64,000 nucleotides of DNA from Chitinophagaceae bacterium 26-R-25 (GTDB lineage: Bacteria > Bacteroidota > Bacteroidia > Chitinophagales > Chitinophagaceae). A program made the position numbers and the translations under genes. Location: the NCBI GenBank assembly GCA_029906195.1, contig JARWSJ010000001.1, positions 124,001-188,000 on the forward strand, in the 5' to 3' direction. The first letter of the stretch is position 1. Each line of letters begins with the position of its first letter. Under the pieces are notes generated by a model. The model did no database searches, had not been told where the DNA came from, and saw only the letters and a program-made list of their open reading frames with translations. Shown one piece after another: positions 20,853 to 44,305 of the stretch.

Positions 20853-23800
20853 TCACCATAACTGCCAGTTAAACTCCGCCAATTCCTGCCTGTTATCGGT
20901 GTTTTGATTCCCGCCTGATTTTGCGCTCACACACTGATTAACTTTTGTGCTTAGTTCGTTAATGCTCATGCTGACATTCTGCCGCAGCAACGCAATGATG
21001 CAGGAAGTGAACCAGCCATTTGTAATGCCGCCGCCTTCTCCGGCAGACTCATTGCTTTGCGCCGCGGAAAGAACATAGGCGCCGTTATTTCGACGGATGT
21101 CTACAAATGCTTCCTTCATCAGTTTAAAAATGTCGGTAGGGGAATTTTGTGAAGGATCATTGTTTTCCACCACATCAAGAATTTCAATACTGCCGGCTTT
21201 GTTTTTTTCATTGTTATCATTTCCTTTTTTTGTACCGGGTATATTGTTGATGCTGTTATTCGTACTGCCGTCGGACTCGCCGCTGTGACATGCATCGAGC
21301 AACATCAACTTTTTCCTGGCAGGAATGCTATCGAGCAGTTCTTCCAGTTGTGCATAGGAGATGCCATTTGTTGAAGGGTCATTCACATCTGTATTGCCGG
21401 TAACAAAATAAAAGTCATCCGGATGCTGCGGATCAACCATGCCATGTCCACTGAAACTCACGATCACTTTATCATCTGCAGAAGTGTTCATTAGTTTTTG
21501 TTTAAGCGAAAGGATGTTTTCTTTGGTGGCAGTTTCATTCATCAATGTGTCGATCACCATATTGCTGTTGAACTTCTGTTTGAATGCAGCGCTTAGATCA
21601 CGTATATCCTTTACACAATAACTCAGATCTACAAAGGAAGAGTGTGCGCTATAATTGTTGATGCCGATGCCGATGAAATAAGTTTTTGCTGCCACAGGTT
21701 TTTCTGGGTTGCATGTTACATACAATGCTTCCTTTCTGCTTACTGCTGCATTTTCATTTGTGCAGTTGATTTCAATTTTGTTCATGCCTTCACTTAGCAA
21801 AACTGCCTGAGTAATATTCGCGCTGTGAGATGCATTGACAAGTTGCTTTCCGTTAATGCCATTTAGCGGCACATCATTTATGAAGATGTTGTAGCTCTTT
21901 ATATTGTAAAGGCTGTCTGAAATAGTGAATGTTAACGGCAGCTGTTGTGTTGCAGTAAAAGGCTGAATGTTTTCCGAATTGACCATCACCGACGGCACAT
22001 GTAGTGTGCTGTTGCTAATATCTTTTTCTGTAAAGCCATTCTTCTGTACTCTGCCTTGCCATGCTTTGTAATACTCATCAATTAAACGCTTGTCATTGCT
22101 GCCTACGGCTTGCAGCACTTTATCCGGACGATTAAACTGAAGATCAAACTGACTGAAATTATACAGCTTGCCATTCAGTTTAAAGTTTAGGTATTTCGCA
22201 TCTGTGCGGGAAGAAATAAAATAATAACCTTCCGGTAAAATGATGGCATAGTCGTGATCTTTGAAAAACACCATGGTGAAAACTTCACGTCCATTTGTAA
22301 GGTTCCATTTGGTAAGTGTGCCTCCTTCGCACCATGTGTATAAATACTTGCTATCAGATGTGTACACAGCTCCGTTGATTACTCCTGCAGTGTTCATCTT
22401 CAGGTTGTAGATCGGAGCGCCATTTTGTGCATTTATGATCCTGGCAAAATGTGCACCTACAGACATTAGTGGATCGGATAAAAGACAAGCAAGTTTTTTG
22501 TTTGGACTTGTGATGTATTTGTTTACGGCGAAGCCAATTTTTTCACCGTTAAAGGCGAGTGGTGTTTTCAAAATGATATTGCTTCGAAGGTCCTGGCAAT
22601 AAATGAAAGCAGGATCAGAGCGATCATCATCAAATCTGCCTATCAGGTATTTCCCATCCTCACTAACAATGGGCATTGGAAAAAAAAGATATTCTGGCTT
22701 CGATGAAATGGGCGTCACGACACTTTTGGGAGCGGCTTTACGAATAGCGTAGGGGACATCATATGTTGTGATGTAGCTTCGTAATTCGTTATTGTATTGC
22801 ACGTTGCTTTCATCAGCAAATAACAATGACGTGTCTGCGCCTTTACTGCCTTTCAACATGCCGAACATTAATGTCACAGTCGGTGGCCCCATGTTCCTGC
22901 GCGGATTCATCATATCCGATGACGTTGTTTTTACAGCAAATGATTGCAGGCCGGGGTAATTGAGTTTGATGAACCTTTTGTTTTCGCCCGGTTTTTCTGG
23001 GGTGTTGCAGTCTTTGCCTATCAATAATTTTGTATCGGAATAGGTATTGTAAGGAATTTCTTTTATGATGGAGGGCGTGTCATTATTAACAATCATCAAG
23101 GTGCCATTAGACTGAAAGGTTTCTCCCAGATCGAGAATGCTGTATTTGTCTTTAAACAAATACTGAGCGCCGAGAATTGTTGCATTGGGCGATGGAATAA
23201 AAGATAATTTGTCTATTGTGTTTACATTCTGCATGCCATACATGGTCCTTGTAATGTACCAGACTTTCGGAGAAAGGTTGCTGACATGCATGAGTGTAAT
23301 GGGGTCTATTACATTGGCACTGTTGGCAATTTCCTTTGCTATGGAGTCTGTAAAATCCCAGAGGCTTAGATTGCCGTCTACATGGCCGGTAACAAGAAAT
23401 TTATCGTTCGGACTGAACGTCATTGCAGACACGGGATTTTTGGTGTCGCAGTGACTGATCACTTTATGCGAGTTGCTCAGAATACTGATGCGACAAAGTG
23501 TATCATGGTTAAGCAACATCATTTGAGCAGCAGCATAGTAAAGCTGTCCATTGCTACTTGTGGTGATTACTGCGTTATCGTACTTTTCTTCCGGTAGGGA
23601 TGTCTGCATGGTATCCTTCAACAAGAAGCGCACAATTTTTGCGGCGGGTGGCTCAATATCTGTTACGTTAGGTTGGGGAACCAAATATGTCATCAACATG
23701 GCAGAATCGTTTCTATTAAAACTTCCACGTTCCAACGCCACCGGTAAATGGCAGACCATTTTTAGATGTTGTACATCCCACAACTCTGTAAAAGCAGGAC

Positions 23801-24620
23801 GATGCACTGGTGGGGTTTTATATTCGATATTAACTTCAGGATTGTAATGAAAAACATATTTGCGCCCCGGGCTCATCAACCACTGACCTCCCTTATAGGC
23901 TTTGCTGGTGTCATTGTAAGCGGCAACTTCCTTGTCAGTCAGAAAATTGAGGATCGTATATTTTGTTACATACAACGGCGCTACTTTATTCAATACTGTA
24001 AATACAGTAATCAACAAAGTGCTGTCCGATACAAATGCAATGAATGTTTCGGCTTCTGTTGTCGTATCCTGGTAGCGGGTTAGTTGTTTAAATAACCTGG
24101 AAGTTGTGACGTCGTAAAGGTTGATCGGTGCATCTTCCACTGACCTCAGGTCACCGTTAGCATCGTACTTTGTTATTTTAACCGGATGAGAAGCAACCCA
24201 TTTGGCATTGGGGCTGAGAGTGGCGTTTTCTTTGCCTTTCAGGCCCATATTTAACGACTTGCCTGATTCAATGTTCCAAAGATAAAAGGCCTCGTTGTTA
24301 TACTCCGTCCATGTATCGCCAAGTTCCAGCACCGGGCCGGGAACAGCAATGACCTGTTTGCTATCATTGGTAAAAGATGCATTGGTGTAAACGACGCCAT
24401 TGCCTCCAAGTTCTGTATTCAGTTTCTGACTAAATGCATCCCATATTTTTATGATGCCATCGTCGCTCGTGGTGACCATTTGTTTGCCATCCGGGCTGAA
24501 CCTTGCTGAGTTTACTTTTCGCAAATGTCCCTTTTGCAAAACAAGTGAAGGAGGCTGTGCACCTGCAGTGAAGAGGCATAACATCAAACACAGTAGTGAA
24601 ATGGTTTTGGTGCACATCAT
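20853..24620 (-). CDS. exported caspase-family protein with N-terminal WD40-type repeats
   Basis: A 1255-residue protein with a signal peptide ending FTAGAQ (about residue 22). WD40-like blades fill much of residues 25-850, for example VNSARFSPDGKQMVTTSDDGIIKIWD and VSAMTFSPNDKFLVTGHVDGNLSLWD. A short Ig-like beta stretch follows (about 900-970). From about 979 a caspase p20 fold begins (YFIGIGINNY) with the catalytic dyad His1059 in SFSGHG and Cys1111 in LLDACHSGE. It would be a cysteine endopeptidase of clan CD acting in the periplasm or at the surface, with the propeller as interaction platform. It starts nine bases after the stop of a second caspase gene, so the two form an operon. Confidence 0.9.
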   Translation of the reverse strand: MMCTKTISLLCLMLCLFTAGAQPPSLVLQKGHLRKVNSARFSPDGKQMVTTSDDGIIKIWDAFSQKLNTELGGNGVVYTNASFTNDSKQVIAVPGPVLELGDTWTEYNNEAFYLWNIESGKSLNMGLKGKENATLSPNAKWVASHPVKITKYDANGDLRSVEDAPINLYDVTTSRLFKQLTRYQDTTTEAETFIAFVSDSTLLITVFTVLNKVAPLYVTKYTILNFLTDKEVAAYNDTSKAYKGGQWLMSPGRKYVFHYNPEVNIEYKTPPVHRPAFTELWDVQHLKMVCHLPVALERGSFNRNDSAMLMTYLVPQPNVTDIEPPAAKIVRFLLKDTMQTSLPEEKYDNAVITTSSNGQLYYAAAQMMLLNHDTLCRISILSNSHKVISHCDTKNPVSAMTFSPNDKFLVTGHVDGNLSLWDFTDSIAKEIANSANVIDPITLMHVSNLSPKVWYITRTMYGMQNVNTIDKLSFIPSPNATILGAQYLFKDKYSILDLGETFQSNGTLMIVNNDTPSIIKEIPYNTYSDTKLLIGKDCNTPEKPGENKRFIKLNYPGLQSFAVKTTSSDMMNPRRNMGPPTVTLMFGMLKGSKGADTSLLFADESNVQYNNELRSYITTYDVPYAIRKAAPKSVVTPISSKPEYLFFPMPIVSEDGKYLIGRFDDDRSDPAFIYCQDLRSNIILKTPLAFNGEKIGFAVNKYITSPNKKLACLLSDPLMSVGAHFARIINAQNGAPIYNLKMNTAGVINGAVYTSDSKYLYTWCEGGTLTKWNLTNGREVFTMVFFKDHDYAIILPEGYYFISSRTDAKYLNFKLNGKLYNFSQFDLQFNRPDKVLQAVGSNDKRLIDEYYKAWQGRVQKNGFTEKDISNSTLHVPSVMVNSENIQPFTATQQLPLTFTISDSLYNIKSYNIFINDVPLNGINGKQLVNASHSANITQAVLLSEGMNKIEINCTNENAAVSRKEALYVTCNPEKPVAAKTYFIGIGINNYSAHSSFVDLSYCVKDIRDLSAAFKQKFNSNMVIDTLMNETATKENILSLKQKLMNTSADDKVIVSFSGHGMVDPQHPDDFYFVTGNTDVNDPSTNGISYAQLEELLDSIPARKKLMLLDACHSGESDGSTNNSINNIPGTKKGNDNNEKNKAGSIEILDVVENNDPSQNSPTDIFKLMKEAFVDIRRNNGAYVLSAAQSNESAGEGGGITNGWFTSCIIALLRQNVSMSINELSTKVNQCVSAKSGGNQNTDNRQELAEFNWQLW

Positions 24621-24629
24621 ATGCTTCTG

Positions 24630-26945
24630 TCATTTTTTAATGTCTGTAATTATATCAACACGTTTCAGCATCCAGTGATCAAATGATTTGATATCACCAC
24701 GTTGCCCGGCACCTTCTTCGTTTAGCAGGGCTTCTAATGGATTATCGCTGAACTCCGGTTCATCACCTTTTACAACACCCCGCCTTGTGAAGACGTCGCG
24801 ATTCGATACCGGCTCCCGCAATGCGATGAAAATGTAGTGATAAGTTCCAGCGGTTGTATGCCTTACTGTTGCAAGGTGATAAAAACTCGTGTCGTTCAAA
24901 ATGCTGTTGGGGTAGGTGAGAATGCTTGTTCGCGGTTGCGGATAAAGCAGATAGGTATTGCCTTTGGGATCGATGGACATTACATAAATAAACAGCGGAG
25001 TGATTTTGTCAGTGGCCAATGCGGACCCTGCATCTTTCTCAATGCCAATGTCGAGCTTGTCTTCAGTGGTTGATTTGCCTGCAGTTTGATCGTCTGCCTT
25101 TTGCTTGCTGCTAATGTTTTTTATGGAAAGGTGATAAGGAAATGTCATCGCTTTGTCCGGAGGAGGAGACGTCATTGATAACCAGTTTGCCAATACAGAT
25201 AATCGTCTGAGCCTATCCGTTATACTGTCAAGTTGATAGCTATTACCACTGACAAAAAAATCTGTTACCGCGCTAAGTCCATTTCCTTTGTTGGCGTCCT
25301 TGCCTAGAATTGTTTTTTCCCAGCCATAGGCAATGCTGTTAGTCTTGTTTGTAAAATGTCCTGCAAGCATATAGTCTGCAGCCGCAGGTGTACTCACCAC
25401 TCGAATGTTCCTGTTTTTCTCCAATGCCAGCTTTACCTGCAGTTGATCAATTAAAGCTTGTGGAGGCGGCAATTGCAGATAGGCGTTGCGTGATTTTGCA
25501 GCAGTGATAAGATTGTTGAGCGTTGTTGCATCAGGATCGCTAAAAGCGAAAGTTTCCATAACGCCATTCCTGTTTAGCTTCCAGCCGTTGTTATAAAAGA
25601 GTATGGCATCCGGAAAGTTTTGATTGGAAGGAGTCATCCATTCATATCCCTTGTTGCTTTGATACAAGGACTTTGCTTTTTCAACAACGTCGTTATAATG
25701 CTCCTGGTCCAAACCATTGCCGAGAAATATTTTTAGCGGAGGATCAGGGTTGGACAATTTTTTCAGAATAGTAAAATTCAGCGCTGTCAGATCATTTGTT
25801 TTCCATTTGTTGCTTTGATTGATCAACATTACCTCTGTTTCCGTAAAGCCAATGTTGGTTACTTTAATGCTGTCTTTTGTTTTGGTATCGATGAGAAGGT
25901 CGTCGTTTAATATATCATCTGTAAAACCTGCGGTTATTACAGGTAATTGCTTCGCAGAACAGTTGGCGCACTTTAGCGAATAGGAAGGCTTCTTTACTTG
26001 CGCAGTTGCCGTGCCCACAAGGTTTTGTTTGCGTCGTTTGTCTGCCTCTATATTCGGCGTTTGCTGCTTGTTTAGCAGACGCAGTTTGGAAACAGTTCTG
26101 TCAAGAAGTACATCGATCGGCGCCTGGCTCCACTCTGTGACTGACCGGCAAAAACTAATGGTAAATGCGCCGTAGTATGTTTTGGGAGATATCTGCGCTT
26201 CACTCGCAATTTCATTATCCTGGCATGAACCAATAGTGAGTGCTCCCGATTGGTCAAGCAAGCGTGTGGAGGCTGTTGTAGTGCTTACAAATTTGCCCGG
26301 CTCAAGGGAAGGCTTTACTTCCCTTGCAGAATCTGCCTCAAAGGTAGTGCTGCCTCGTGTATTGGTGGCGCTGTGACAGCAATCTGTAATCACTGTAAGT
26401 ACAACACCTTTGTCTGTGAAGCCGGAGAATATCTTATTTAACTCCGCACTGTTAAGATCGGGAACGCCCGGTTTTACTATATCTGCAGACAGTATGGTGT
26501 TGCGGTATCCTTTGCCTGTTCTCAGTTGGTTGTTGCTTGCTGTTTCATATTCATAACTGCCATGTCCGGAATAAAAGAACACGAAGTAATCGCCCTTCCT
26601 GCATTTGGAAAGTATCTCGTTAAACTTTTGCAGAATCGCTGCCCGTGATGCTTCCTGGTCGCGCAAGATGGTGATGTTCTGTGGCAGGAAGCCATAATAT
26701 TTTATAAACAATTTTGAAATAGTGTCTACATCATTCAGGCACCCGTTGAGGTTTTTAATCTCACGATCCTTGCAGATCTGGCATGTAGCAAGGGTTACAT
26801 TGGCCAGGTAGTTATTAATGCCTACACAAAGCATGTACTGCGTGCCCTTGGCAGCTCTCTGCGATTGTGTTTGGGAAAACGCACAGCCACATATAAACAG
26901 ATAACAGAGTGATAAGAACCAATATGACAGAAGCCTTTTTCTCAT
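24630..26945 (-). CDS. exported caspase-family protein with DUF4384-like C-terminus
   Basis: A 771-residue protein. The leader MRKRLLSYWFLSLCYLFICGCAFSQ is a Sec signal or a relaxed lipobox (Cys20 or Cys21). The caspase domain occupies about 35-300: MLCVGINNY, the catalytic His128 in YSGHGS and Cys190 in TDCCHSA. Residues about 320-610 are of unknown fold with a Cys-x-x-Cys (KCANCSAK), and the end (about 655-740) has a DUF4384-like beta domain with PLFIYVMSIDPKGNTYLLYP. It is first in a two-gene operon with the WD40-caspase. A TPR membrane protein is divergently encoded 270 bases upstream. Substrate and trigger are unknown. Confidence 0.88.
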   Translation of the reverse strand: MRKRLLSYWFLSLCYLFICGCAFSQTQSQRAAKGTQYMLCVGINNYLANVTLATCQICKDREIKNLNGCLNDVDTISKLFIKYYGFLPQNITILRDQEASRAAILQKFNEILSKCRKGDYFVFFYSGHGSYEYETASNNQLRTGKGYRNTILSADIVKPGVPDLNSAELNKIFSGFTDKGVVLTVITDCCHSATNTRGSTTFEADSAREVKPSLEPGKFVSTTTASTRLLDQSGALTIGSCQDNEIASEAQISPKTYYGAFTISFCRSVTEWSQAPIDVLLDRTVSKLRLLNKQQTPNIEADKRRKQNLVGTATAQVKKPSYSLKCANCSAKQLPVITAGFTDDILNDDLLIDTKTKDSIKVTNIGFTETEVMLINQSNKWKTNDLTALNFTILKKLSNPDPPLKIFLGNGLDQEHYNDVVEKAKSLYQSNKGYEWMTPSNQNFPDAILFYNNGWKLNRNGVMETFAFSDPDATTLNNLITAAKSRNAYLQLPPPQALIDQLQVKLALEKNRNIRVVSTPAAADYMLAGHFTNKTNSIAYGWEKTILGKDANKGNGLSAVTDFFVSGNSYQLDSITDRLRRLSVLANWLSMTSPPPDKAMTFPYHLSIKNISSKQKADDQTAGKSTTEDKLDIGIEKDAGSALATDKITPLFIYVMSIDPKGNTYLLYPQPRTSILTYPNSILNDTSFYHLATVRHTTAGTYHYIFIALREPVSNRDVFTRRGVVKGDEPEFSDNPLEALLNEEGAGQRGDIKSFDHWMLKRVDIITDIKK

Positions 26946-27031
26946 AGTGGATGGGGTATTGTATTAGGTCTTGCCAATAAGAAGATCTCTGAGGTGGTTT
27001 GTTGCAATAGGAGATAGGAGATGTGGGGAAT

Positions 27032-27121
27032 GTGCGGTGTACGTTGTACGATGTACGAAATTCATTAGAGTGTGTTACAGTAAAAGCTGTCGTACACCGT
27101 ACTTCGTACATCGTACACTGT
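27032..27121. repeat. dyad repeat family R3, copy a
   Basis: TGTACGATGTACGAA (27045-27059) pairs perfectly with TTCGTACATCGTACA (27103-27117), within longer GTAC-rich arms. A diverged copy with the shared segment GTACGA-ATTC-TTAGA-TG is at 45316-45400. It lies in the 270-base gap between the divergent caspase operon and TPR gene. Confidence 0.85.
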
Positions 27122-27215
27122 CCTATACTAATATACAAAAGTTCCTGCCGCTTTCACAAAAACAAATTTCACGGGATAAATGTTAACTTACGTAACATCA
27201 CCATATTCGGCGGCA

Positions 27216-28679
27216 ATGAAAAAATTGAACCTCACCTTTATTCTGTTGGTTAGTATATTTTTTGCATCTGCGCAAAAACGCCAGACCGATAGTTTGTCCG
27301 TTTTGTTAAGCGAGGAAAAAACAGATCATGGGAAAGTTGAATTGTTAAATGCACTTAGCTATGCCTACCAGGATTCCAGGCCGGATTCAGCTTTATTGCT
27401 GGCACAAAAAGCATGGTTCTTATCAAGGAAGAACAATGATGTAAAAGGAGAATCCGATGCATTAAGCCAAATGGCGATTGCTTATAAAAGTCTTGGAAAT
27501 TTTACCAAATCACTTGAGTACTCGATTGCCAAATTAAAGATGGATGAAGAACATGAGTCGCCTGCAAACCTCACTGTTAGCTATCTTTACATTGCATCAC
27601 TATACGCTGAATCAAAGGATTTCGACAAAGGGTTGTTGTACGCAAAAAAAGCAGATTCAATTATTAGTGACCAGCATCCACAAATAAAAAGGCCGGACTC
27701 GATTACCCGGCAACTGCAGGATTATTCACCATACTGTTTTTTAAGCATGGGCGATATTTATGAGAAGAAAAACATGCTTGATTCGGCAATTGTCTACACG
27801 CAAAAATGCCTGGATATCAGCACAGAGGTAAACAACACTGTGTTGATTGGAACCTCGCTTAATAATCTCGGCAACATTTATAGAAAATCAGGAAATGATT
27901 CTGCGGCCCTTAATAATTATCGGGCGGCCATCCCTTTTATCTTATCTAACAACGATTACTCTACTTATGCAGAAAGCACATTGGGGATGGCCCAGGTGTT
28001 TGAGCGCATGGGGAAGCAGGACTCTGCATTACACTATGGTAAACGATCTTTTTCTATTGCGGGGGCAAACCAGTTCATTGTAAAGAGCTTGAATGCTATT
28101 AACTTTTTATCGACTCTTTATAAGAAGAACAGCAGTATAGACAGCGCCTATGCTTATCTCGAAATGGCGGGTTCTTTAAAAGACTCTATTGAAAGCATCG
28201 AGAAAATACGCGAATTGCAAAACATGAGTACTGCCGAGCAGGTAAGGCAGGCGGAGTTGGAACAACAAAGGCAGGAACAGATCATAGACAGGAAGGAAAA
28301 ACTGCAACTGCTTTTTATCGGCATTATGATACCCATCTTCTTTTTGATCAGTATTGTTATTAGCAGAAGAAAAGTGCACAGAAGATTTGTTGAGTTTATG
28401 GGGATTGTTTCGGTGCTGTTATTCTTTGAGTATATAACGCTGTTGCTGCATCCATTCATTGCTGAAAAATCACATCATTCGCCCATCATCGAGATTGTTG
28501 TTTTTGTTGCCATTGCCGCCATCATTACACCGGCTCACCACAGAATACAACACTGGTTGTTAAAGAAATTGTCAGAATATAATTACTTAAAACACCACAA
28601 GCACGAAGCGGAATATGAACAAGATGAAGATGATATTACGGAAGAAGACGCGAATGAGGCAATGCCGGGAATTAGTTGA
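27216..28679 (+). CDS. TPR membrane protein of unknown function
   Basis: A 487-residue protein from the ATG at 27216, chosen because MKKLNLTFILLVSIFFASAQ is a good signal peptide; the frame is open 12 codons further upstream without support. Tetratricopeptide repeats fill about 40-310. A coiled coil (STAEQVRQAELEQQRQEQ) leads to about three membrane segments (about 355-460), then a highly acidic tail. This is the layout of Bacteroidota TPR sensor proteins but without the usual histidine kinase or DNA-binding domain. It is divergent from the caspase operon, and its stop codon lies inside the R5 repeat. Confidence 0.8.
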   Translation: MKKLNLTFILLVSIFFASAQKRQTDSLSVLLSEEKTDHGKVELLNALSYAYQDSRPDSALLLAQKAWFLSRKNNDVKGESDALSQMAIAYKSLGNFTKSLEYSIAKLKMDEEHESPANLTVSYLYIASLYAESKDFDKGLLYAKKADSIISDQHPQIKRPDSITRQLQDYSPYCFLSMGDIYEKKNMLDSAIVYTQKCLDISTEVNNTVLIGTSLNNLGNIYRKSGNDSAALNNYRAAIPFILSNNDYSTYAESTLGMAQVFERMGKQDSALHYGKRSFSIAGANQFIVKSLNAINFLSTLYKKNSSIDSAYAYLEMAGSLKDSIESIEKIRELQNMSTAEQVRQAELEQQRQEQIIDRKEKLQLLFIGIMIPIFFLISIVISRRKVHRRFVEFMGIVSVLLFFEYITLLLHPFIAEKSHHSPIIEIVVFVAIAAIITPAHHRIQHWLLKKLSEYNYLKHHKHEAEYEQDEDDITEEDANEAMPGIS

Positions 28680-28795
28680 AAATTGAAAGTTGAAAGTTGA
28701 AAATGCTTTTTGTGTAACATTTGAACTAGAATGCTTCTTCTTGCTAAGGCTCGAAGCGACTCATTTTCAACTTTCAACTTTCAATTTTCAATTTC
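28675..28795. repeat. dyad repeat family R5, complete copy
   Basis: GTTGAAAATTGAAAGTTG and further GTTGAAAATG (28675-28703) faces CATTTTCAACTTTCAACT and TTCAATTTTCAATTT (28763-28795). The first GTTGA contains the stop codon of the TPR gene. It separates convergent genes and could terminate both. Half copies are at 8519-8550, 58462-58490 and 62744-62774. Confidence 0.85.
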
Positions 28796-28809
28796 TAAAT
28801 AACTCTCGC

Positions 28810-29052
28810 TTACTTAGAAGGTTTTGGTACTTTAATTTCTCGTCCCGTATCAGAAGGGTTTGTAGTGTCAGCTGGCATCGGCATTTTCATGGTGTCTGCC
28901 GGTTTCATAGTTGTGTCAGCGTGCATTGCGGCAGCTGAGTCTGCCTTTTTTTCTTCGGTACTTCCGTTGTTGTTGCAGCTATAAATGCCTGCAATCAACA
29001 CTGCCGCCAACAACAATATTGGCCTGAAAGCCTGATGGGTTTTGGTTGTCAT
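28810..29052 (-). CDS. small lipoprotein with Thr/Pro/Met-rich tail
   Basis: An 80-residue protein from the ATG at 29052; the frame extends 33 codons further but only the internal start places the leader RPILLLAAVLIAGIYSC at the N-terminus. Cys26 in the lipobox is followed by an unstructured, low-complexity tail with repeated ADTTMKPADT-like units. It is probably an outer-membrane-anchored small lipoprotein of unknown function. It lies 111 bases downstream of the LRR lipoprotein gene on the same strand. Confidence 0.7.
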   Translation of the reverse strand: MTTKTHQAFRPILLLAAVLIAGIYSCNNNGSTEEKKADSAAAMHADTTMKPADTMKMPMPADTTNPSDTGREIKVPKPSK

Positions 29053-29163
29053 TTCGGTTTTAATTTTCTCTAATGTAGTGTTATTATTTTTTGGATGCAA
29101 GCCTTTGTGAACCTTATACGGATGGTTGTGCATCGGAATGACAGACAACATCTGGTTGATATT

Positions 29164-30909
29164 TTAGTAAGCAGGGTACCATCCTTTTTTAGTTGCAATG
29201 GTTTGATCGCAACCGCCGCCGCCCGGATTGTATAAAGCGTAAATGGACCCGGTTGCAGGAGGTACCATTGGATGAAGACTTGAAAACAAATTGTTCAATG
29301 CTGCTGCCGACAAGTTATTTGTGTTGCATCGAACCACTTGCAGTTGAACGCAATTGGTAAGATCCAACGCGGTCAGTTTGTTGTAGCTGCAATCGAATGT
29401 CAGGAGACTGTTCGCATGCAAAAGGCTTAACGTGTCGAGCTGGTTCGAAAAGCAGGCCAGTGTTTGTAATGATTTATTTTCCGACACAATCAAAGAGGTG
29501 AGTACGTTGTTGGCGCAATTCAGATTAACTAACGAAGGGCTGCCTGTGGCATCAATCTTTTGAATGTTGTTATCGTGAGCGTCAATAAACGTTAGTGCCG
29601 GATTGTTTGAAATGTTTATAGTAGTCAGATTGCTATAGTAACAGTTAAGGTACTTCAATGCCGTGTTGTGGCTTACATCCAGTGAAGACAGGCCTGTGTT
29701 GTTGCAATACAGTGTATCCAACTGTACGTTATTTGAAATGTTAAGCGTTGTAAAATCATAGTTGGATTGGCAATCCAAATAGGTAAGCGCTGTGTTTTTG
29801 GAAACGTTTAAATTGATAACACGCGATCCCCCACAATCCAGATGCTTTAAAACCGGGTTGTTTGAAAAATCGATCGAGTAAAAACGATTAATCATGTATC
29901 CGTTGCTACTGCTGCAATCCACGTAAGTTAGTTCCTTATTGTTGGAAAGATCAAGGCTAGACAGTTCATCATCTCCACAATTTAAGAAGGTTAGTTTAGC
30001 GTTTTTCGAAACATCGAGCGATCTTAAATGATTTTCAGAACAGTCAAGATAAGTCAGGTTCGGAAGCTTGGTTACATCAAGATTTGAACCATCAACGTTC
30101 ATACAATACAGATAAGTGATATTGTCACCGCCCAGTTTTACGGGGTACACACCTACTCTGGGAAAATCATGCTTTACCATAGTACCCTCTGTCAGTTTGT
30201 TGAAGGTTTCATATTTCCCATCGCCCCAGTCTACTGAAATATTATCGCCCCTTAGTGCCAATTGTACCTGTGTTCTATTATTGGTGATAAAAGTGGCCAG
30301 CTCATTTTTGCCATCGAGAAAAGATGAGTTGTTGGCGTTCCATCCGCGTTTTATAGCTATTGTAGGATCGCAGGTCCATGTTCCGGGATTCATGTGAAAT
30401 ACGATAGAATCAGCGTCTTTAGTTGTATTGACGTGCAAGGTTTTAAACAAGCTGTCAAGTCCTGAGTTGGAAAAATTGTTTGCCTGACAGTTTACAAATT
30501 TTAATGCTGAATTTTTAGAAAGATCGAGTTGAGTGAGCACGTTGTCATAACAATTCAGGCTGGTTAAAGAAGGATTGCCTGAAACATTGAGATCACGTAT
30601 TTTGTTGCTGCTACAATTTAAACTTGTAATCGATTCGCCCCTGATAACAATTGTATCGATTTTGTATTCTAAGATGGTGTGGGAAAGCAGGAGGCCTGTA
30701 TATGTTTTGGAAAAAGTTTCTTCCGGCGTGCCGTCGCCCCAGTTTACCGTAATATTTTTTCCGTTGACGTATAAATAGAAATTGCCGTAAGTACCTACGA
30801 GCTTAATTTCTTCTGTGGTGGGTTTTTCATTGGAAGTATTGGTATCTGATTTCTTTTGGCAACCAAAAAACAATAGAGTGGTCAAAACGATCAATACTTG
30901 TTTTGTCAT
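29164..30909 (-). CDS. leucine-rich-repeat lipoprotein
   Basis: A 581-residue protein from the ATG at 30909 (14 codons inside the longest frame), which puts the lipobox LLFFGC at the N-terminus (Cys17, followed by QKKSD). Two WGDG-containing beta modules (ITVNWGDGTPEE and ISVDWGDGKYE) each precede a run of leucine-rich repeats of about 21 residues with the consensus L-x-x-L-x-C-x-x-N-x-L-x-x-L-D-V-S-x-N. Such proteins are surface-anchored binding scaffolds. The ligand is unknown. It is divergent from the DUF1254/DUF1214 gene. Confidence 0.88.
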   Translation of the reverse strand: MTKQVLIVLTTLLFFGCQKKSDTNTSNEKPTTEEIKLVGTYGNFYLYVNGKNITVNWGDGTPEETFSKTYTGLLLSHTILEYKIDTIVIRGESITSLNCSSNKIRDLNVSGNPSLTSLNCYDNVLTQLDLSKNSALKFVNCQANNFSNSGLDSLFKTLHVNTTKDADSIVFHMNPGTWTCDPTIAIKRGWNANNSSFLDGKNELATFITNNRTQVQLALRGDNISVDWGDGKYETFNKLTEGTMVKHDFPRVGVYPVKLGGDNITYLYCMNVDGSNLDVTKLPNLTYLDCSENHLRSLDVSKNAKLTFLNCGDDELSSLDLSNNKELTYVDCSSSNGYMINRFYSIDFSNNPVLKHLDCGGSRVINLNVSKNTALTYLDCQSNYDFTTLNISNNVQLDTLYCNNTGLSSLDVSHNTALKYLNCYYSNLTTINISNNPALTFIDAHDNNIQKIDATGSPSLVNLNCANNVLTSLIVSENKSLQTLACFSNQLDTLSLLHANSLLTFDCSYNKLTALDLTNCVQLQVVRCNTNNLSAAALNNLFSSLHPMVPPATGSIYALYNPGGGGCDQTIATKKGWYPAY

Positions 30910-41201: not shown

Positions 41202-42551
41202 TTACCAGAGCTTCTGGTTATCAGAAATCTTGTCTGCCAATTGATCATTAGACGATCTCTTTTTTCTTCTGTATTTTTTTACAGCTGATTTAAGTTGCTT
41301 TTGCTCCGTGGTTGTTGGAGGTGTATTTTCATCTTTATATATTTCGCGATAAATATTGGCAATGTTTTTTGTCATTGCGGTCTCCTTTTCTTTTGTAAGT
41401 GTTTCCGCTGCAGAGGCAGATTTGTTGGCAATGCCTGATCTGTCCCACCATTGGTACAATCCATTGATGACTTTGCCAGAACTGTTTTGGCTGTGCATAA
41501 ATCTGTTGAACCAGTGCTTTTCACTGTTCAGATAATTGCGGCGCTTTTGTATGAGCCATTGCACAAGACTTATTATCAGCCGCACAAGAACGTATGCTAC
41601 AGCGAGGGCCACCAATGCATACAGGCTGAACCAATACCATGGGATGCCATAGATTAGATACGGGCCTTTCTTCTTTTCCGGTGGCTTTGTTATTTTCTGT
41701 GCAGTTTTTAAACTGTCTTTTAAAGTGGTAAGAATACCAAGGTTTGGATTCTCTTTGATGTGTATACTCAGCGATGCCGTAGACTTCTCGTATTTGCGGC
41801 TATTATTGGGATTCCACCATGTAACCCTGACAGGTGGAATGTTAAAGTCGCCTGCTTTCTCCAACAAGTAGGTGATGCTTTCTATTCGCCTTCCGTTGGC
41901 GTCGTTCTCATCACGGGTATCCTCCAGTTCTGCATCATCAGGATAAATGCTTGCCCAGTCTGGTTTTTCCTTTGCTACTTCAGGGATGAATTGTGGCAAT
42001 GTGCCGCTTGCATCAATTGTAATTGTTCTTTCAATAACATCACCCACTTTTAAGCTGCGAAGAGATTTGTTCCATCGTTCGGAAATTCTCACGCCTTTTG
42101 CCACAAACCAATTGTCTGTTTTAAGACTTGCCGGAACATCTTTTACAACGATCTTTTGCGGAGCGGTTGTCAATGTTACTTTTCTGCTTTCGGAACTTCC
42201 TTCAGGTGGAGTAGTGGCCACAATATGGATAGGAGGAATTGTAAACGTGCCAGCTTTGTAAGGAAAGACGATAAAATAAAATTCAAGTCCCGCATATTGT
42301 TTGTCTCCTACAGGAAACATGCCTGATTGCGTTCTGTCAAACGGAAGAATAAATGCACTTGGTATTTGAATGTTGTCGAAATCGAGCGGTGCAGTGTACC
42401 ATGTTTTAGTAAGCACACGTATGGTTACGCGAATAGGTTCCTGTACATACACGCTGTGCTTGTTCAGTTCCACACGTGCAAAGCAATCTTGTGCGTAAGA
42501 ACTCATGGAGGTGAAGCAAAGCAAAATGAATATGGTGATGGTTTTTACCAA
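41202..42551 (-). CDS. batD: BatD-like protein
   Basis: A 449-residue protein with a signal peptide ending MSSYAQ (21). Beta-rich Ig-like segments (about 25-280) follow the BatD pattern: RVELNKHSVYVQEPIRVTI, YKAGTFTIPPIHI and SLKVGDVIERTITI. One membrane helix (about 305-330, WYWFSLYALVALAVAYVLVRLI) leads to a basic cytoplasmic tail of about 115 residues. BatD is the last member of the Bat operon, which is thought to form a membrane-associated complex tied to aerotolerance and envelope stress. It overlaps the upstream VWA-TPR gene by seven bases. Confidence 0.9.
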   Translation of the reverse strand: MVKTITIFILLCFTSMSSYAQDCFARVELNKHSVYVQEPIRVTIRVLTKTWYTAPLDFDNIQIPSAFILPFDRTQSGMFPVGDKQYAGLEFYFIVFPYKAGTFTIPPIHIVATTPPEGSSESRKVTLTTAPQKIVVKDVPASLKTDNWFVAKGVRISERWNKSLRSLKVGDVIERTITIDASGTLPQFIPEVAKEKPDWASIYPDDAELEDTRDENDANGRRIESITYLLEKAGDFNIPPVRVTWWNPNNSRKYEKSTASLSIHIKENPNLGILTTLKDSLKTAQKITKPPEKKKGPYLIYGIPWYWFSLYALVALAVAYVLVRLIISLVQWLIQKRRNYLNSEKHWFNRFMHSQNSSGKVINGLYQWWDRSGIANKSASAAETLTKEKETAMTKNIANIYREIYKDENTPPTTTEQKQLKSAVKKYRRKKRSSNDQLADKISDNQKLW

Positions 42552-44305
42552 GATTCTTTTTCCGGTTTTACATTTTTATAATAGCGCATTTTTTGTATCT
42601 CAAATCTTCTATGCAAGAATTCGCCGGGATCGGCATTTGTTTTTTGCATCAGGATTTTTTCAGAAGTTGATTCAGGTTTTTGCAGCTTGAAATCCTTGGG
42701 TGGGAAAGTCGCTTCTTTGTATTTATGGACGTTGCTCTGCACTTCGTCCGTTACCCTGTTGCCAAATTTGGGAAGATTCTTCACCTGTGTATCAGCGGAA
42801 AGTTGCTCGTCATCTGATTGGGCTTTACGTTCTTTCAAGGGATCTTTCTTCGCTTTCTTTTTGTTCTCAGCAACTTGCTTTGTTTTTTTATTTGGATCAA
42901 ATTTTACCAGTGAATCCACTTTCATTTTTTCATGCTTTGCTTTGGTAATGCTGCTATTGGCCCTGTCCCTAAGCGATGGGTCAAGAGTTGCCGCTTTTTC
43001 AAAAATCGTTTCCGCCTCTTCATAACGTCCCATTTTTGCAAGTGCCAGGCCACGATTGTATTGACCGCTGGCAGAACTGTCCATTTCAAAAAGTTCAGCA
43101 GCGGTTTGATAATCACCTGCCTTAAAATAGGCGACCGCTTTCTGCGTGTTGTCATCAAATCTCTCGGCAGCGTCTGTATAATCTTTTGCATTGGCATACA
43201 ACTGGCCCTGGTAATCTTTTGTGTACCACCAATCAGGATGCTTACTTTTTAAGCCACAGGAAGTAAGCAACAAACATGCTAAAGGGAACCAGCTCCATTG
43301 AATTACCCAACCCTTCCTGAACCAGAAAGCAGCAATGACAAGCATTGGTAAAATGAGCAACCAGCCCATATCGTCCCAGTCTTTTTCATCTTCCTTCTTG
43401 TCCTTTTCAAAAATGAGTTTGTCACTTATCCTTTTTGCTATGCCTTCTACATCAGATTTGTCAAGTGTTATTGGCGTTATATTGATTTTTTCATTTTGCT
43501 GAAGATTGGCAAGCACTGTTGGGTCCTGTTTTGAAATAACACTGGCATGACCCGGAACTGAAATCCCGTTTGGTGTTGACAATAATAATATTTCGAGATG
43601 ATGCACACTGCCATTTATATAATTGCTCAGCAGAATGGCGTCGTCAGAACTGATTGCATCTGTCATCAGCAAAATGGTACTTGGCGCAAAAATCCTTTGC
43701 ATCATCGTATCTACAATGTCGAGCAGTATGTGCATGTTTGTTCCCTGCACCGGCATCTCTCTGTTGGCAAGGCTTTGCGCGTGATGTTTAATGATTTTGT
43801 AGTCACTTGTAAATGGAAGAACAGGGTGTGCTGTTCCTGCAAATGCCACCAAACCTGCCCTGGCCCTTGGATTGGCGTCGACGAAGTCTGATATCTTGAA
43901 CTTCGCTCTTTCCAATCTGCTCGGTTCTATATCTTTTGCCAGCATCGATTGTGAAAGGTCGAGTGCGATCAAAACCACGGCCTGTATCTTCTCTCCGGGA
44001 ATTTGTTTCTTTTTCCATGTAGGGCCCGCCAGGCCAATAATGCCCAATGAAGTCCCAAGTAGAAACAGCAGCAGAGGCAGTATAATTGCCCATGGACTGC
44101 TTTTAGTGAACATATATTTTCTCAACGGTGCGGCGATGATTGTCTTCCATTTTTTTCGTTCTTTATTACCGATGACCAGTAACAAAACAATGGCTGCGAG
44201 CACGAAAAACAAATACAAAACCTTTGGGCGCAGAAAGTGAAATTGCGTCCAGTCAATGCCTTTGATAATATTTTTTAGCGCTTCTATTTTTTCTTCAATG
44301 TTCAT
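42545..44305 (-). CDS. batB: BatB/BatC fusion: VWA domain plus TPR
   Basis: A 586-residue protein. Two membrane helices (about 29-46, 72-93) precede a von Willebrand A domain whose MIDAS site is DLSQS (Asp116, Ser118, Ser120). A third helix (about 313-329) is followed by a second hydrophobic stretch ending FPLACLLLTSC (Cys350), a lipobox-like sequence, then TPR repeats (about 370-450) and a basic Lys-rich tail. In many Bacteroidota the VWA part (BatB) and the TPR part (BatC) are separate genes, so this looks like a fusion retaining the BatC leader. It overlaps batA by four bases and batD by seven, so all three are translationally coupled. Confidence 0.9.
   Translation of the reverse strand: MNIEEKIEALKNIIKGIDWTQFHFLRPKVLYLFFVLAAIVLLLVIGNKERKKWKTIIAAPLRKYMFTKSSPWAIILPLLLFLLGTSLGIIGLAGPTWKKKQIPGEKIQAVVLIALDLSQSMLAKDIEPSRLERAKFKISDFVDANPRARAGLVAFAGTAHPVLPFTSDYKIIKHHAQSLANREMPVQGTNMHILLDIVDTMMQRIFAPSTILLMTDAISSDDAILLSNYINGSVHHLEILLLSTPNGISVPGHASVISKQDPTVLANLQQNEKINITPITLDKSDVEGIAKRISDKLIFEKDKKEDEKDWDDMGWLLILPMLVIAAFWFRKGWVIQWSWFPLACLLLTSCGLKSKHPDWWYTKDYQGQLYANAKDYTDAAERFDDNTQKAVAYFKAGDYQTAAELFEMDSSASGQYNRGLALAKMGRYEEAETIFEKAATLDPSLRDRANSSITKAKHEKMKVDSLVKFDPNKKTKQVAENKKKAKKDPLKERKAQSDDEQLSADTQVKNLPKFGNRVTDEVQSNVHKYKEATFPPKDFKLQKPESTSEKILMQKTNADPGEFLHRRFEIQKMRYYKNVKPEKESW

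What the first reader, a model, noticed from the sequence alone, without database searches (positions are those of the whole stretch)
20853..30909. Exported two-caspase operon beside TPR and LRR scaffold proteins
Two caspase-family proteins, both with intact His/Cys dyads (SGHG and DxCHS) and export leaders, are encoded nine bases apart. One carries WD40-type blades, the other a DUF4384-like domain. Divergent to them is a TPR membrane protein, and an LRR lipoprotein lies further on. Known bacterial caspases in defence are mostly cytoplasmic, so an envelope caspase module with a propeller sensor would be unusual. Functional linkage to the TPR and LRR genes is inferred from proximity only.
Basis: partly seen in the sequence, partly recalled or inferred. 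Interest (0 to 1): 0.6.

Follow-up and report, generated by a model that had tools for sequence, protein, structure and literature searches.

The report
Exported caspases with TPR membrane partner
A soil bacterium carries two caspase-like proteases that appear to be sent out of the cytoplasm, next to a membrane protein that in many related bacteria also sits beside caspase genes; this suggests a caspase apparatus working in the cell envelope, though its task is unknown.

Summary
The observation mostly holds. Two caspase-family (Peptidase C14) genes with intact His/Cys dyads and leader-like N-termini lie nine bases apart; one carries WD40 repeats; a TPR membrane protein is divergent. DUF4384 was not detectable in CaspA. 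The LRR lipoprotein is real but not linked: it is missing beside the module in the three closest relatives.

The TPR protein (leader, TPR solenoid, three C-terminal membrane helices) is a caspase-linked family. In a genome-collection scan, 60 of 80 loci encoding it have a caspase-family gene within 500 bp (47 of 63 outside the genomes already seen; 54 of 62 where both flanks reach 2 kb). Weaker TPR paralogues had none in 22. The TPR tree tracks caspase type, and a glutamate in the third membrane helix marks the linked family.

WD40-caspases, possible export and multi-caspase operons in Bacteroidetes were reported in 2012. Seven searches of one open library listed no description of the TPR partner.

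Best mechanism, inferred: the TPR protein docks and controls caspases in the periplasm. Flanks show no coherent defence genes, but no comparison set was run. Nothing shows proteolysis, localisation or binding.

The parts
24630..26945 (-). CaspA: caspase-family protein with leader, 771 aa, first gene of the pair
   Evidence: PF00656 72.9 bits; Foldseek of a low-confidence model ranks metacaspases and MALT1 first
26874..26945 (-). CaspA N-terminal leader (about residues 1-24)
   Evidence: hydrophobic segment 5-23; crude leader rule met; the Cys residues near its end are not kept in P. soli or DXS
26028..26762 (-). CaspA Peptidase_C14 domain (residues 62-306)
26562..26564 (-). CaspA catalytic His128 codon
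   Evidence: invariant in 14 of 14 aligned sequences
26376..26378 (-). CaspA catalytic Cys190 codon
   Evidence: invariant in 14 of 14 aligned sequences
20853..24620 (-). CaspB: WD40-caspase protein with leader, 1255 aa, nine bases downstream of CaspA
   Evidence: PF00656 65.7 bits and PF00400 60.7 bits
24555..24620 (-). CaspB N-terminal leader (about residues 1-22, ending AGA before Q)
24438..24533 (-). CaspB best WD40 repeat (residues 30-61)
20901..21668 (-). CaspB Peptidase_C14 domain (residues 985-1240), dyad SGHG at 1057 and DACHS at 1109
27216..28679 (+). TPR-3TM protein: leader, TPR solenoid, long helix, three C-terminal membrane helices; divergent from CaspA
   Evidence: TPR_12 64.8 bits; AlphaFold2 pLDDT 86.2; membrane helices
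28308..28535 (+). three-membrane-helix region, residues 365-440, holding E405, H412 and E426

Best explanation
This is an extracytoplasmic caspase module. CaspA and CaspB are made from one transcription unit, exported by their leaders and (no type IX sorting-domain model matched) kept in the periplasm. The divergent TPR-3TM protein sits in the inner membrane with its TPR solenoid in the periplasm and its charged tail in the cytoplasm. I propose that the TPR solenoid docks the caspases and holds or releases their activity, that CaspB's propeller region chooses substrates or senses a ligand, and that the membrane helices, with their buried Glu and His residues, pass a signal across the membrane. 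Cleavage would be after Arg or Lys rather than Asp. Shown: gene anatomy, intact dyads, conserved linkage of TPR-3TM with caspases, co-inheritance of TPR clade and caspase type. Inferred: one transcript, export, periplasmic meeting, docking, control, cleavage specificity, physiological task. The confidence is for the mechanism; that TPR-3TM and caspases form a conserved module I hold at about 0.95.
For: Linkage: 60 of 80 TPR-3TM loci from a genome-collection scan have a caspase-family ORF within 500 bp, 54 of 62 with both flanks >=2 kb. Well-flanked loci thinned at 50/60/70% TPR identity: 12 of 14, 29 of 32, 41 of 46. Control: among TPR hits in 195 family genomes, 15 of 19 strong-hit loci (L046, L070-L087) but 0 of 22 weaker paralogues (L088-L109) have a caspase in the fetched stretch (Fisher 6e-8). 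Genome level: 22 of 23 genomes with a strong TPR-3TM hit have PF00656 against 61 of 172 others. Orientation: nearest caspase head-to-head in 44, just downstream on the same strand in 15, other in 1. TPR tree: the 12 rows with CaspA-type caspases need one change (shuffled mean 11.4; SH-aLRT 96); all labels 9 changes vs 26.8 shuffled. In DXS the TPR-CaspA-CaspB trio is kept but the flanks differ (L039). Compartment: leader-like start in 82 of 87 module caspases vs 422 of 967 other ORFs; loop TM1-TM2 has 5 K/R. All 87 keep a His and a Cys: 83 by motif, 4 by reading. E426 is Glu in 55 of 55 linked-family rows aligned and in 0 of 22 weak paralogues (read). Specificity: CxxD and DxC Asp positions match metacaspases (CaspA alignment; the role of these residues is recalled).
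Against: No experiment: no proteolysis, localisation or interaction shown. The leader rule is crude: 44% of other ORFs pass, and the P. aurantiacus CaspA orthologue (L110) fails it. Three module loci (L166, L167, L168) have minimal 294-317 aa caspases with, by my reading, no evident leader, although two of them pass the rule; so a cytoplasmic caspase can stand beside a TPR-3TM gene. Eight of 62 well-flanked loci have no caspase beside the TPR gene. Many caspases in the family lie away from TPR-3TM genes. Loci are related and some share flanks, so counts are not independent. Neighbourhood can reflect shared regulation, not contact. CaspA modelled poorly (pLDDT 48).
Confidence: 0.5

Rival explanations
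1. Anti-phage or abortive-infection system: the caspases are suicide proteases triggered by infection, with TPR and WD40 parts as sensors.
For: PADLOC's caspase model matches both (7.5e-13, 9e-19) and its TPR model matches the TPR protein (3.2e-11). Among 111 flanking proteins of other module loci a few single strong PADLOC matches occur: RtcR-like 1.2e-104, MkoA 3.6e-76, MzaA 1.2e-45. Bacterial caspases in defence are known (recalled).
Against: Window flanks: 0 of 10 proteins match PADLOC at 1e-5. In the 111 (drawn from 12 sampled loci; none of L181 entered) no model matches more than 3 members (25 of 37 families shown); the MkoA match is one 609-aa protein, matched only to the C-terminal part of the profile (L145). 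No comparison set was scanned. Export would put the proteases away from phage replication (inference).
Confidence: 0.15
2. Processing protease for surface or secreted proteins: the module matures or clears envelope proteins, as clan CD gingipains do in other Bacteroidota (recalled), with no death function.
For: Leaders; no cytoplasmic signalling enzyme in the unit; trio and several flanks shared within Pinibacter; neighbouring SusC/SusD-like genes.
Against: No substrate candidate is co-conserved: with the clustering used, the only families found in more than 12 of 80 loci are the TPR protein and three caspase clusters. The SusC/SusD genes are not within the 20 kb fetched in DXS.
Confidence: 0.25
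3. Mere co-localisation: TPR-3TM and caspases share a divergent promoter or an old gene order without working together.
For: Part of the loci share flanking families (9-12 loci), so counts are not independent; adjacency alone is not interaction.
Against: Link persists at 32-40% TPR identity, in two main orientations and with several caspase types; thinned counts stay at 12 of 14; weak paralogues 0 of 22.
Confidence: 0.1

Closest known systems
Prokaryotic metacaspases/orthocaspases (Peptidase C14; PMC3501461, passages read)
   Same: C14 domain, His/Cys dyad, WD40 or TPR fusions, possible signal peptides, multi-caspase operons incl. Bacteroidetes
   Different: the passages I read do not describe a membrane TPR partner
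Craspase / TPR-CHAT (PMC9729208, start of abstract in a listing)
   Same: TPR part coupled to a caspase-like protease
   Different: RNA-guided, with a CRISPR gRAMP; here TPR and caspase are separate genes with leaders, and 0 of 10 window flank proteins match any PADLOC model
TPR sensor proteins of Bacteroidota such as FimS-type histidine kinases (NF053520)
   Same: TPR repeats and membrane helix; 50.6 bits over residues 18-401
   Different: far under its 600-bit cut-off; no kinase domain match; two further membrane helices
EACC1-associated caspases (NF047832)
   Same: caspase domain resembles the model
   Different: 77.4 and 31.6 bits vs a 140-bit cut-off

Membership tests
Peptidase C14 (caspase) | profile match above curated cut-off | tested here: met
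   65.7 and 72.9 bits vs 21.4
Peptidase C14 (caspase) | His/Cys catalytic dyad | tested here: met
Peptidase C14 (caspase) | caspase fold | tested here: inconclusive
   CaspA model mean pLDDT 48; Foldseek first rows metacaspase 9 and MALT1, E 3.9e-11 to 1.5e-10; CaspB not modelled
Metacaspase/orthocaspase | acidic S1-type residues CxxD and DxC | tested here: met
   CLND at 69 and DCC at 188; CVKD at 1002 and DAC at 1109; aligned with metacaspase-4 for CaspA; role recalled
Metacaspase/orthocaspase | cleavage after Arg/Lys | not testable with these tools
   needs enzyme assay
WD40 propeller protein | WD40 repeats above cut-off | tested here: met
   60.7 bits vs 27, two stretches in CaspB
WD40 propeller protein | complete closed propeller | not tested
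   CaspB was not modelled
DUF4384 | profile match in CaspA | tested here: not met
   no hit at E<=5; homologue L040 23.9 vs 27 bits
EACC1-associated caspase (NF047832) | score above cut-off | tested here: not met
FimS-type sensor kinase | kinase domain / score above cut-off | tested here: not met
Anti-phage defence system | defence genes in the window's neighbourhood | tested here: not met
   0 of 10 flank proteins
Anti-phage defence system | defence genes around other module loci | tested here: inconclusive
   scattered single matches among 111 proteins, no comparison set
Anti-phage defence system | protection against phage | not testable with these tools
   needs plaque assay
Type IX secreted protease | C-terminal sorting domain | tested here: not met
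   no such NCBIfam model listed for either caspase at E<=0.1

The most novel reading that the evidence does not exclude
TPR-3TM is a transmembrane receptor or activation platform for periplasmic caspases: a signal on one side of the inner membrane, read through buried Glu/His residues of the three helices, switches on Arg/Lys-specific caspases outside the cytoplasm. This would be a bacterial caspase pathway run across a membrane, with interchangeable caspases around one constant partner.
Probability: 0.3. Interest if true: 0.78.

Novelty: new variant of a known kind. Interest (0 to 1): 0.57.

Why it matters
Most studied bacterial caspase systems act in the cytoplasm (recalled). A constant membrane partner for leader-bearing caspases in Chitinophagales and Pedobacter makes the question of what bacterial caspases do outside the cytoplasm testable in named isolates (Pinibacter, Pedobacter, Lacibacter) with a defined gene set and a marker residue, E426.

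Tried and rejected
LRR protein as a module member: rejected. It is absent beside the trio in P. aurantiacus, P. soli and DXS; of 5 genomes searched, the own one and the two Pinibacter relatives have only a partly similar LRR gene elsewhere, DXS and G004 none.

DUF4384 in CaspA: not found.

CaspA as lipoprotein: the Cys residues near the end of the leader are not kept in P. soli or DXS.

A specific regulatory site between CaspA and the TPR gene: the inverted repeat at 27031-27117 is a dispersed repeat (61 matches to one arm with up to 2 mismatches in the genome, 0 for the control).

Diverged caspases in loci without one: seven neighbours in such loci were scanned (L120, L130, L131, L133, L142, L150, L188); none is a caspase by Pfam. 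L143 and L154 were not scanned.

The three-helix region as LptF/LptG-like: only 22.1 bits vs 27.9.

CaspA structure: too uncertain beyond the caspase core. The TPR fold search showed TPR solenoids in the rows listed, LGN first.

Literature: seven searches in one open library. Searches returned no paper; of the others I saw 25 of 61, 12 of 109, 1 of 1 and 10 of 16 titles. No listed title describes a caspase-TPR membrane module. Passages read: PMC3501461, PMC8195603, PMC4933709. No whole paper was read.

Counts dropped or corrected: one search used 17/2 vs 0/22 for the strong/weak table by mistake; one search repeats it with 15/4 vs 0/22. L071/L116 (one locus seen twice) holds a 134-aa fragment that groups with caspases but counts as a miss. 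In the tree, 12 of 80 loci with a cut flank and no caspase got no label, and rows of 380 aa or less were left out; CaspA type was called by a DCC[HYF]S motif. The weak set is 22 of the weaker hits, taken mostly from the top down; some contigs are short. The caspase profile was trained on 20 sequences of L037-L056 and the window, so L046 is not independent; L037-L039 and the window are not in the 19.
Full report
CaspA (24630-26945, minus) and CaspB (20853-24620, minus) are separated by nine bases; the TPR gene (27216-28679, plus) is divergent. Both caspase domains pass the Pfam cut-off, and no other PF00656 match reached E 0.001 in the 6.5 Mb genome.

Anatomy. CaspA: leader, caspase domain 62-306, and a C-terminal region without a Pfam family. 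CaspB: leader, WD40 repeats, a long middle part, caspase domain 985-1240. Dyads are intact in both. The TPR protein has a leader, a TPR solenoid, one long helix running into the first of three membrane helices (365-383, 397-415, 422-440), and a charged tail. Five Lys/Arg in the TM1-TM2 loop fit a cytoplasmic loop and hence periplasmic TPRs (inference). CaspA has no membrane segment beyond its leader; CaspB has one other hydrophobic stretch, 192-210, inside the propeller region, more likely a strand (inference).

Close relatives. All four keep TPR, CaspA and CaspB in the same order. In DXS the flanking genes differ, so the trio behaves as a unit. Of these four, only the window's genome has the LRR gene at this place.

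The TPR family is caspase-linked. Searching 195 family genomes with the TPR protein's last 180 residues gave strong hits (E<=6.2e-39) in 23 genomes; 22 of these also have PF00656, against 61 of the other 172. I fetched stretches around hits and searched them with a caspase profile built from 20 sequences. Of 19 strong-hit loci (L046, L070-L087) 15 have a caspase; of 22 weaker paralogues (L088-L109) none has (Fisher 6e-8). A scan of the GTDB genome collection with the TPR alignment returned 80 loci, the best of 87. Sixty have a caspase-family ORF within 500 bp; no further one appears in the up to 10 kb held on each side. With both flanks at least 2 kb it is 54 of 62; the eight misses are L120, L130, L131, L133, L143, L150, L154 and L188. 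Seventeen of the 80 repeat loci of the first set; without them it is 47 of 63, and 41 of 48 with both flanks. Thinning related TPRs among the 62 leaves 12 of 14 (50% identity), 29 of 32 (60%) and 41 of 46 (70%). The nearest caspase is head-to-head in 44, just downstream on the same strand in 15, other in 1.

The caspases vary. Besides CaspA-like proteins there is a caspase of about 445 aa, mostly with a DCCN motif (48 of 80 loci; motif counts; two representatives pass the Pfam cut-off), long caspases with TPR repeats (L085) and WD40-caspases (L080/L170; caspase part by my profile, WD40 by Pfam). All 87 caspases within 6 kb keep a His and a Cys in caspase context: 83 by motif, 4 by reading, two of these with AHG for GHG and two with ESC for DxC. 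The TPR tree follows caspase type: the 12 CaspA-type rows need one change (shuffled mean 11.4), and all labels together 9 (26.8 shuffled) (a quick tree with several long branches, and near copies favour clustering). E426 in the third membrane helix is Glu in 55 of 55 linked-family rows aligned, some of which lack an adjacent caspase, and in none of 22 weak paralogues (read from the alignment).

Spread. In 395 phylum-wide genomes only 5 reach E 1e-15, one of them outside the family (G326), and that one has a caspase, cut by the end of the locus, beside the TPR gene. The 80 named loci are mostly metagenome bins titled Chitinophagaceae, Chitinophagales, Ferruginibacter, Sphingobacteriales or just Bacteroidetes/Bacteroidota, plus isolates of Pinibacter, Pedobacter, Lacibacter and Hufsiella and a Candidatus Parvibacillus.

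Function. Leader-like starts occur in 82 of 87 module caspases by a crude rule that 422 of 967 other ORFs also pass; the P. aurantiacus CaspA fails it. No type IX sorting-domain model matched the window's caspases. The simplest reading is that TPR domain and caspases meet in the periplasm and that the TPR protein docks and controls them. Against a strict form: three loci (L166-L168) have minimal caspases without an evident leader by my reading, though two pass the rule. Defence is not excluded. The window's flanks give 0 of 10 PADLOC matches. Among 111 flanking proteins of other module loci, matches are scattered, with a few strong single ones: RtcR-like 1.2e-104, MzaA 1.2e-45 (loci not traced), and MkoA 3.6e-76, which is one 609-aa protein in L145 matched only to the C-terminal part of that profile. 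No comparison set was run.

Known and new. PMC3501461 (passages) already reports WD40 and TPR fusions, possible signal peptides, multi-metacaspase operons in four groups including Bacteroidetes, and suggests extracellular action. What I did not find described, in seven searches of one open-access library of which I saw the top titles, is the constant TPR-3TM partner. I rate it a new variant of a known kind.

Noticed in passing
27031-27117: Inverted repeat of GTACG units between CaspA and the TPR gene; 61 matches (up to 2 mismatches) to its arm in the genome, 0 for the control: a dispersed REP-like element.
   Followed up: partly
G149 contig C40 and G070 contig C1: Tandem runs of caspase genes of about 1100 aa: six listed within 36 kb in G149 C40, five listed within 28 kb in G070 C1 (the match list was cut).
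   Followed up: no
L046:7338-13505: Three tandem caspases of 663-681 aa divergent from a TPR-3TM gene, apparently a local expansion.
   Followed up: no
L166:8934-9818, L167:417-1301, L168:8959-9912: Minimal 294-317 aa caspases beside TPR-3TM genes, without an evident leader by reading; only the L167 one fails the crude rule.
   Followed up: partly
L040-L042, L043: CaspA-like proteins next to a 337-362 aa protein (no Pfam family for the L040 copy) and a divergent 825-832 aa caspase, or in L043 a divergent caspase with about 26 TPR repeats: a second recurring caspase neighbourhood.
   Followed up: partly
42545-44305: VWA plus TPR protein that looks like a Bat operon component (name recalled); no link to the caspases seen.
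   Followed up: no
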